Assembly: GCA_903923925.1 (NCBI GenBank)
Contig: CAIXZF010000107.1
Location: forward strand, 1 to 64,000
Reading direction: 5' to 3'
Length of the DNA: 64,000 nucleotides
Source of the DNA: an uncultured Bacteroidales bacterium
GTDB lineage: Bacteria; Bacteroidota; Bacteroidia; Bacteroidales; CAIXZF01
Shown: one piece after another, positions 5,293-55,490 of the stretch
How the letters are laid out: each line of letters opens with the position of its first letter
Position numbering within the stretch: position 1 is the first letter of the stretch
Notes under the pieces: generated by a model
Told to the model about the DNA's origin: nothing
The model's database searches: none
What the model saw: only the letters and a program-made list of their open reading frames with translations
Translations under genes and position numbers: made by a program

Positions 5293-7932
5293 TTAACCTC
5301 CCAACATTTTTTTTATTCCGTTTAGTTTCATCAAAGCTTCTACTGGTGTTAAAGTATTGATATCTGTTTTGAGTATATCATCTTTGATCTGTTCAAGCAA
5401 GGGATCGTCTAACTGAATGAAACTCAGCTGATACTGATCGTTTTTGTGACGGGCGGCCTTTGCAACGGATTTTTCTGCAAATTCGCGGCTGGAGTGCGAT
5501 TTCTCAAGCTGAACCAGAATGTCCTCGGCTCTTTTCAGAACACTCTGCGGGATGCCTGCCATACGCGCTACATGTATACCAAAACTGTGTTCTGTTCCGC
5601 CTTGTACCATTTTTCGAAGGAATATTACCTTATTGCCCACTTCTTTTACCGAAACATGGTAGTTTTTAATTCGGTTCATTGTAACTGCCATTTCGTTTAA
5701 TTCGTGGTAATGCGTGGCAAACAGCACCTTTGGATGATGCAGCGGATGCTCATGCAGGTACTCTGCAATTGACCATGCAATGGAGATTCCGTCGTAAGTA
5801 CTGGTGCCACGGCCTATTTCATCCAGAAGTATCAGGCTGCGGCTTGATACATTGTTGAGAATACTGGCGGTTTCATTCATCTCAACCATGAAAGTGGACT
5901 CACCGGATGAAATGTTGTCGGAGGCACCTACACGCGTAAATATTTTGTCGACGATTCCGATAACTGCCTTTGATGCGGGAACATAACAGCCTGTTTGTGC
6001 CATCAGTACGATCAGCGCAGATTGCCTGAGGAAGGCGGATTTCCCTGACATATTCGGCCCGGTAATAATCAGGATCTGCTGACTGTTATTATCGAGGAAA
6101 AGATCGTTTGAAACGAAAGACTCATTTGGCGGAAGCTGCTGTTCAATTACCGGATGCCTTCCGTTTTCGATGGTAAGCTCTGTGGATTCGGTAATCTTCG
6201 GACGGGTGTAATTATTCCTTGTGGCAACATTCGCAAAGGAAAGAAGCACATCCAGCCTTGCCAGTAAACCGGCATTCAGCTGAATTGGCTCTGTATATTC
6301 GGAAAGAGCGAGCACAAGTTCATTGTAAAGTCTGGCTTCTATAATCTGGATCTTTTCTTCGGCTCCAAGAATTTTTTCTTCATAGTCCTTAAGTTCCTCA
6401 GTAATATAACGCTCGCAGTTAACCAGGGTTTGTTTGCGGTGCCATTCAGGAGGAACTTTGTTTTTATGGGTATTGGTTACTTCCAGATAATAACCGAATA
6501 CATTGTTATAGGCTATTTTAAGGGATGAAATTCCAGTTCTGTCGGTCTCACGCTGAACAATCTGCTGCAGATAATCTTTCCCGGAATAGGCAAGCTTTCT
6601 GAGTTCGTCGAGGTCGGGATTAATGCCATCGGCAATTACCCCGCCTTTGCTGAGCAAAACGGGCGGATCTTCTTTTACTTCCCGCGAAATACGTTCGGAA
6701 ATAAGCTTACAGGGATTCAACTGTTCGCTGAGTGTTCTCAATGTAGGCTGATCCGAATTACCACATGCTTCTCTGATGGGCTCTATTGCTTCCAGAGCCC
6801 GTTTAATATATTGAACTTCCCGTGGATTGATGCGCCCCACCGCAACTTTGGAAATCAGGCGTTCGAGATCGCCAATAACCTTGAGGTTCGATTCTATCGT
6901 TTTTTTAAATTGCTCGTTTTCAATATAATGACTAACAATTTCCTGACGTTCCTCTATTGGTTTTGGATCCTTTAAGGGCATCACTATCCATCGGCGGAGC
7001 ATCCGTGAACCCATTGGCGTAATGGTAGAATCGAGGACAGTTAATAAGGTTTTAGCGTTTTCGAACGGACTATGGAGAAGTTCCAGGTTACGGATTGTGA
7101 AGCGGTCGAGCCATACATAATGTTCCTCTTCTATTCTGGAAATGTGAGTAATATGCTGAACACGGTCGTGCTGAGTTTCTGAGAGGTAATGAAGTGAAGC
7201 TCCTGCAGCAATGATACCGTTTTCCTGTTCTTCTACTCCGAATCCCTTCAGAGAAATTGTGCCAAAGTGTTTAACGAGTAAATCGTGGCCGAAATCATGC
7301 GTAAATACCCAATCTTCGAAGGTTGTAAGGTAGAATTTGGGGCCGAATCGTTCGATAAAATCCTGCCGTTTATTCTTCTGAACGATTATTTCGCTGGGGT
7401 GGAAAGTTTGAAGGAGTTTATCAATATAATCATCATTTCCCTGTGCCAGCATAAATTCGCCTGTAGATACATCAAGGAAAGAAATACCTGAATTCCTTGG
7501 AAGCAGGTGGATTGAGGCGAGGAAGTTATTTTCCTTATGCTCCAGAACTTTATCATGATAGGTAACTCCAGGCGTAACCAGTTCTGTAACACCTCTTTTA
7601 ACAATCTTTTTTGTTAGTTTTGGATCTTCCAGCTGATCGCAAATGGCAACTCGGTAACCAGCTCTTACCAGTTTCGGAAGATAGGTGTCGAGCGAATGGT
7701 GGGGAAAACCTGCAAGTTCTACATAAGTTGCTGCGCCATTGGCTCTTCGGGTAAGAACAATTCCAAGGATACCCGAAGCTTTTATTGCATCTTCACCGAA
7801 AGTTTCATAGAAATCGCCGACTCTGAAAAGCAGCAAAGCGTCAGGATATTTCGCCTTAATAGCGAAATATTGCTTCATCAGCGGGGTTTCAACTATTCCT
7901 TTTGTATTTTCCTTCATCTGCTCTTCCTTCAT
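5293..7932 (-). CDS. mutS: DNA mismatch repair protein MutS
   Basis: MutS binds mismatched or looped DNA as a dimer and recruits MutL using ATP. From ATG 7932 the protein has 879 aa, the usual size. The mismatch-recognition wedge is [10 protein letters not shown] with Phe41 and Glu43. The connector, core lever and clamp regions follow, then Walker A GPNMSGKS near residue 620 and Walker [11 protein letters not shown] with the STYDG signature near 700, and a C-terminal helical dimerisation part. The frame stays open 23 codons further upstream, but that stretch is not MutS-like. ATG 7917 is an alternative start, favoured if the TAnnTTTG box at 7937-7944 is the promoter. The gene stands alone, divergent from the TrmH-type gene. 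Confidence 0.97.
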
Positions 7933-54724: not shown

Positions 54725-55024
54725 TTAAATTAATTCACTAAAATCCAATCGTTTTGCTGAATGGTGAATTGTTAAAATGTCGATTTGTTTTGCAGAAACA
54801 ATGGTATAAATGATTCTGTAATTCCCAAATATCAGCTCCCTTATTTTTTCGGAATATATCTCCGGCACAATGCGACCGCTATAAGGTAGTTTTGTTAATT
54901 GTTTTGATGTATTCCGTATTCTAAATACTGTAATCTTTGCATACTTAACTGAATCTTTTGCAATGAAGTCAGCAATATTAACAAGATCATGAATGGCTTG
55001 ATCTGTCTAATTTAAACTAACCAT
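54725..55024 (-). pseudogene. RelE/ParE-type toxin gene with amber codon at position 6
   Basis: ATG 55024 reads MVSLN, then TAG (55009-55007), then TDQAIHDLVNIADFIAKDS, YAKITVF, PYSGRIVPEIYSEKIRELIF, GNYRIIYTIV and ILTIHHSAKRLDF to TAA 54725. This is a full 99-codon RelE/ParE-family toxin except for the stop where the family has Trp in the I/N-W-T context, which fits a single TGG to TAG change. The start overlaps the antitoxin end, the usual arrangement. Such toxins cut ribosome-bound mRNA (RelE) or poison gyrase (ParE). As it stands the reading frame is broken; suppression or an internal start cannot be excluded. Confidence 0.82.
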
Positions 55025-55194
55025 TCAGGGAGTTTTTTTTCTAGGTCCTGGTCTGGAGTTACCTGCTTGTTTTCACTTTGCTGAAGGCCTGTTTCGATTT
55101 TATAACATAAATAGATACTGTCAATTACATCCTCAACAGAGAATCTAGATGGGAGATGATTGATGGTTTCGATTAATTTTTCTTTAGTTAGCAT
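55012..55194 (-). CDS. Antitoxin of the RelE/ParE-type module
   Basis: 60 aa, acidic and helical: MLTKEKLIETINHLPSRFSV, then DVIDSIYLCYKIETGL and a disordered tail (QQSENKQVTPDQDLEKKLPE) that could bind the toxin. No clear DNA-binding domain is present; the N-terminal half may be enough for dimers. It overlaps the toxin start by 13 bases. An intact antitoxin beside a broken toxin suggests the module has lost its poison. No upstream operator was clear in 55195-55250. Confidence 0.75.
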   Translation of the reverse strand: MLTKEKLIETINHLPSRFSVEDVIDSIYLCYKIETGLQQSENKQVTPDQDLEKKLPEWLV

Positions 55195-55490
55195 ATCTTT
55201 AAATTATCAATTACAAAGATAGCTTTAATTGTATAATTTTTTGCGTTTAAATGAAACCAGGCGGTTGGTTGTCCTTTGTTTTGGTGGGAATAGTATATAA
55301 ACTTTTTCTTTAACGCAATGAACGCAAAGAAAGAAACATCCTGTGAATTCAAAAATATAATCTCCTGAAAACTTGTTTCCTGTCAAAAGAAACCGGACAT
55401 TTGCACCCCTTTTTAAGGGAAACTAAAGGTAGGGGTAATCCGGGCCTAAAGTTTTAAGGATCAATTTATTTAAATTAAAAAGTTTACAAC

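What the first reader, a model, noticed from the sequence alone, without database searches (positions are those of the whole stretch)
54725..55194. Toxin-antitoxin module with a toxin disarmed by one amber codon
The toxin frame is full length (99 codons) and otherwise intact, but codon 6 is TAG where RelE/ParE proteins have Trp (TGG) in the same context. Antitoxin overlap is preserved. This is either a fresh natural knock-out kept with its antitoxin, or a case where translation restarts or a suppressor reads through.
Basis: partly seen in the sequence, partly recalled or inferred. Interest (0 to 1): 0.65.

Follow-up and report, generated by a model that had tools for sequence, protein, structure and literature searches.

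The report
Decaying toxin-antitoxin module, toxin amber-broken
A bacterial toxin-antitoxin gene pair has lost its toxin to a single early stop codon while the antitoxin gene stays whole, a common fate for this gene family and not a special genetic code or a new mechanism.

Summary
On the minus strand, 54725-55024 is a 99-codon ParE-type toxin frame, intact except for TAG at codon 6, where 150 of 168 homologues have TGG. The 60-aa antitoxin gene upstream (55012-55194) is whole, overlaps the toxin by the usual 13 nt, and has a Bacteroidota-type TAnnTTTG box. The best explanation is a recent nonsense knock-out of a horizontally acquired ParDE-like module. It sits between dnaE and rpsP, which are directly adjacent in the only genome searched of the same family. 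Recoding is not supported: RF1 is present, TAG ends six of 32 long frames in the window including neighbouring dnaE, no CUA tRNA was found, and the only standard in-frame restart would give 47 aa. Such breakage is routine here. Of 79 antitoxin loci examined, almost all from one class-wide survey, 50 have an intact toxin, 16 a broken one and 13 none. At least 28 homologues carry in-frame stops at scattered codons. Codon 6 was hit four times independently, as expected because TGG is the most nonsense-prone codon in the frame. Read-level confirmation was not possible. The retained antitoxin may be a remnant or may protect against related toxins; this is undecided. Ordinary, low interest.

The parts
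54725..55024 (-). ParE-type toxin frame, 99 codons plus stop, interrupted at codon 6
   Evidence: predicted fold pLDDT 92.9, the best 22 PDB matches are toxins of ParDE-type modules
55007..55009 (-). In-frame TAG at toxin codon 6, where homologues have TGG (Trp)
55012..55194 (-). Antitoxin gene, 60 aa, uninterrupted; its last 13 nt overlap the toxin start
   Evidence: conserved partner of the toxin across Bacteroidota
55195..55240 (-). Upstream region of the antitoxin with TATCTTTG (TAnnTTTG, Bacteroidota -7 type box) about 20-30 nt before the ATG
   Evidence: 70 of 141 homologous upstream regions carry TAnnTTTG against 5.9 expected from shuffles
54725..54868 (-). Only standard in-frame restart ORF of any length downstream of the amber (GTG, 47 aa, lacks the N-terminal strand and both helices)

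Best explanation
This is a type II (ParDE-like) toxin-antitoxin module, inserted between dnaE and rpsP in the ancestry of this Bacteroidota genome, whose toxin was recently inactivated by a single nonsense change in the Trp6 codon. The antitoxin can still be transcribed and translated. Ribosomes that restart at the overlapping toxin ATG would stop after five codons, so no toxin is made. Shown: the frames, the stop, conservation of TGG elsewhere, absence of the module at this junction in a relative, ordinary use of TAG as a stop, and frequent independent breakage of this toxin family. Inferred: loss of toxin activity, recency, and antitoxin expression.
For: TAG at codon 6 and an otherwise open frame. 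TGG in 150 of 168 homologous frames. The toxin with its stop still scores 141.6 bits, fourth of the matches in 396 genomes, so the rest is undecayed. pN against relatives (0.195-0.257) brackets the range between intact relatives (0.229-0.236), with dN/dS about 0.15 where dS is not saturated. RF1 is present; TAG ends 6 of 32 long frames in the window, dnaE included; no CUA tRNA among 36. dnaE and rpsP are adjacent with about 0.2 kb and no module in G001 of the same family, against 944 nt here. Of 79 antitoxins with sequence downstream, 50 have intact, 16 broken and 13 absent toxins; stops at scattered codons in 28 homologues. All 22 rpsP matches found by the same method have no internal stop.
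Against: No reads were available, so an assembly or sequencing error at one base cannot be excluded. The tRNA list lacks some expected species (no His, Ile or Ala-tgc found), so it is incomplete. No expression data.
Confidence: 0.88

Rival explanations
1. Sequencing or assembly error: the true codon is not a stop and the module is intact.
For: A single base difference, and no other lesion in the toxin frame. No reads available.
Against: Breakage of this toxin family is common in unrelated assemblies, including frameshifts and deletions, while 22 rpsP genes show none, so a high base-error rate is not a general explanation.
Confidence: 0.07
2. Recoding: UAG is read as an amino acid here by a suppressor tRNA or programmed read-through, giving a low, regulated toxin dose.
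For: Full-length open frame with conserved residues after the stop; two other homologues also have TAG at codon 6 (L072, L233).
Against: RF1 present; TAG is a routine terminator, including for dnaE; no CUA tRNA recovered; one further homologue has TGA at the same codon and the rest have TAA, TAG or TGA at scattered codons, which fits nonsense mutation rather than a conserved recoding signal; L072 also has changes at conserved residues and a 4-aa antitoxin deletion.
Confidence: 0.03
3. Translation restarts downstream and yields a shortened active toxin.
For: A GTG at codon 53 opens a 47-aa frame.
Against: It would lack strand 1 and both helices of the predicted fold. Before it only ATT and ATA codons occur, which are very rare as starts.
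Confidence: 0.02
4. An addition to the best explanation rather than an alternative: the antitoxin is kept by selection (anti-addiction, neutralising related incoming or resident toxins) rather than as a passive remnant.
For: 13 of 79 antitoxins have no toxin at all and 16 have a broken one, while only 1 of 78 antitoxin matches carries an internal stop. A second, solitary antitoxin lies in this genome. The promoter-like box is kept. Anti-addiction has been proposed for orphan antitoxins (PMC7192599).
Against: The antitoxin is shorter and was used as the anchor, and breakage of the toxin may be advantageous or neutral, so the asymmetry does not require selection on the antitoxin.
Confidence: 0.3

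Closest known systems
ParE toxins of ParDE modules (Pfam PF05016; PDB 6x0a, 5cw7, 3kxe)
   Same: Same predicted fold (helix hairpin plus sheet), sequence similarity, toxin gene downstream of its antitoxin
   Different: This copy is stopped at codon 6. Its partner does not match the Pfam or NCBIfam antitoxin models above threshold
Degenerating chromosomal toxin-antitoxin systems and orphan antitoxins (reviewed in PMC7167474; surveyed in PMC7192599 and PMC10790755)
   Same: Chromosomal modules acquired by transfer and lost by nonsense mutation or deletion; antitoxins outlasting toxins
   Different: Those two surveys treat Klebsiella and E. coli; this is a Bacteroidota lineage

Membership tests
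ParE/RelE superfamily toxin | Sequence match to the family profile | tested here: met
   PF05016 52.2 bits against cut-off 23; TIGR02385 25.6, below its cut-off 27.9; TAG read as Trp for the search
ParE/RelE superfamily toxin | ParE fold | tested here: met
   pLDDT 92.9; top 22 PDB hits are toxins of ParDE-type complexes, TM (query) 0.74-0.83
ParE/RelE superfamily toxin | Uninterrupted coding frame | tested here: not met
   TAG at codon 6: a pseudogene of the family
ParDE gyrase poison | Inhibits DNA gyrase | not testable with these tools
   Target cannot be read from sequence
Type II toxin-antitoxin operon | Small antitoxin gene directly upstream, overlapping the toxin, conserved as a pair | tested here: met
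   13-nt overlap in nearly all homologous pairs
Named antitoxin families (RelB/ParD, Phd etc.) | Profile match of the antitoxin | tested here: not met
   No Pfam or NCBIfam match for the window antitoxin; only weak RelB_ParD NF050811 (best 0.024) in 3 of 22 relatives
Amber recoding / suppression | CUA tRNA or loss of RF1 | tested here: not met
   RF1 present; no CUA among 36 tRNAs, list incomplete

The most novel reading that the evidence does not exclude
Early nonsense changes at codon 6, the first highly mutable codon after the antitoxin overlap, are favoured as a clean off-switch that spares the antitoxin, and the disarmed modules are then kept as antitoxin-only immunity against related toxins in Bacteroidota.
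Probability: 0.1. Interest if true: 0.4.

Novelty: new member of a known kind. Interest (0 to 1): 0.15.

Why it matters
As a single locus it matters little: it illustrates the known decay of chromosomal toxin-antitoxin modules. The survey made here gives a measure for one family in one Bacteroidota class (about a third of antitoxins lack an intact toxin), which could be used to ask whether solitary antitoxins are selected. The antitoxin matches no curated family model, so annotation would probably leave it unnamed and the toxin unannotated.

Tried and rejected
Suppressor tRNA: 36 tRNAs read, none CUA, though the list is incomplete. Alternative start: none of useful length. Special meaning of codon 6: stops there in 4 of 28 broken frames; a mutation model with transition bias predicts 2.2 to 4.1 (P 0.16-0.61), without transition bias 1.3 (P 0.04), so mutability is enough. 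Phage link: no viral contig gave a relative. Plasmid link: only distant matches below 60% identity. Defence-system models: none.

Full report
Observation. The minus strand of 54725-55024 holds a frame of 99 codons plus stop, with one internal stop, TAG, at codon 6. The other two frames of that strand are full of stops. The antitoxin ORF at 55012-55194 is 60 aa, uninterrupted, and overlaps the toxin start by 13 nt.

Identity. With TAG read as Trp for the search, the frame matches Pfam ParE_toxin (9.2e-14) and weakly, below cut-off, NCBIfam RelE_StbE. AlphaFold2 gives a confident ParE-like fold (pLDDT 92.9), and the best 22 solved structures are toxins of ParDE-type complexes. The target (gyrase for studied ParE proteins, from general knowledge) was not testable. 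The antitoxin belongs to a conserved but unmodelled family of about 60 aa ending in K-W-L/F-x: no Pfam or NCBIfam match for this protein, and only weak RelB/ParD hits in 3 of 22 relatives.

Codon 6. In 168 deduplicated homologous frames that cover it, codon 6 is TGG in 150, TAG in 3 and TGA in 1, with other sense codons in the rest. W6 lies at the end of the first strand of the model. Stopping there leaves five residues. The first standard in-frame start after the stop is GTG at codon 53 (47 aa).

Recoding tested. The genome has RF1 (prfA). TAG terminates 6 of 32 stop-to-stop frames of 250 codons or more in the window, including dnaE, the neighbouring essential gene. Of 36 tRNA genes found by the Rfam model, none has a CUA anticodon. 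The tRNA set is incomplete, since His, Ile and Ala-tgc were not recovered, so absence of a suppressor is likely but not proven.

Origin. In G001, the only genome of the same family among those searched, dnaE and rpsP are divergent neighbours about 0.2 kb apart with no module between. Adjacency is also seen in G015, G018, G021 and G023. In the window the gap is 944 nt and holds the module. The module was therefore probably acquired in this lineage, or less likely lost repeatedly in the others.

Recency. The toxin frame, stop included, scores fourth highest in a survey of 396 genomes of the class (141.6 bits). Its nonsynonymous divergence from relatives (pN 0.195-0.257) is like that between intact relatives (0.229-0.236), and dN/dS is about 0.15 where dS is not saturated. 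Most of its history was under constraint, so the nonsense change is recent on that scale. This is an inference.

How common. I took the antitoxin as anchor in a class-wide survey, adding the G001 locus. The script's count was corrected for the two codon-6 stops that it listed as intact (L129, which is the window, and L233). The result: 50 of 79 antitoxins have an intact toxin downstream, 16 a broken one (stops, frameshifts, deletions) and 13 none recognisable. Only one of 78 antitoxin matches contains a stop. By the same search method, none of 22 rpsP genes had a stop, so assembly error is not the general cause. G001 also carries a module of this family with an amber at toxin codon 20 at a different place. 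The window's own genome has a second antitoxin of the family without a toxin (L186). One case of the reverse order was seen: L011 has an intact toxin frame but a frameshift in the antitoxin.

Recurrence at codon 6. Four of 28 broken frames stop first at codon 6 (window, L072, L233, L279). A mutation model over 138 intact homologues shows that codon 6 is the most nonsense-prone position once transitions are favoured, with 2.2-4.1 expected (P 0.16-0.61); with no transition bias 1.3 are expected (P 0.04). No special cause is needed.

Antitoxin. A TAnnTTTG box, the -7 motif known for Bacteroides promoters (motif from general knowledge; papers using it were found but not read), lies upstream of 70 of 141 antitoxins of the family against 5.9 expected, and is present in the window. 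The antitoxin is probably expressed. Whether it is kept by selection is undecided. Decay of chromosomal modules by nonsense mutation and deletion (PMC7167474) and abundance of orphan antitoxins with a proposed anti-addiction role (PMC7192599, PMC10790755) are described in the literature.

Verdict. A real, correctly described, ordinary pseudogene in a toxin-antitoxin module.

Noticed in passing
G000:C22:4067-4231 (L186:2565-2756): A second antitoxin of the same family (63 aa) in the window's genome, with no recognisable toxin downstream; its C-terminus lacks the usual K-W-L motif.
   Followed up: partly
window 55012-55194 and alignment A2: The antitoxin family is widespread and conserved (about 60 aa, C-terminal K-W-L/F) but has no Pfam or NCBIfam model that recognises it.
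   Followed up: partly
upstream of antitoxins, e.g. window 55195-55240: TAnnTTTG box is strongly enriched upstream of this antitoxin family (70 of 141 against 5.9 expected).
   Followed up: yes
L234 (G001:C32, about 6135-6422): The genome in the same family carries a homologous module at another place, with an amber at toxin codon 20 and a whole antitoxin.
   Followed up: partly
L011:2829-3294: Reverse case: toxin frame open, antitoxin interrupted by a frameshift near its middle, possibly at a run of A.
   Followed up: partly
L072:2843-3300 and L233: Independent TAG at toxin codon 6 in a Chlorobiota MAG and in another genome of the same class; a TGA at the same codon in L279.
   Followed up: yes
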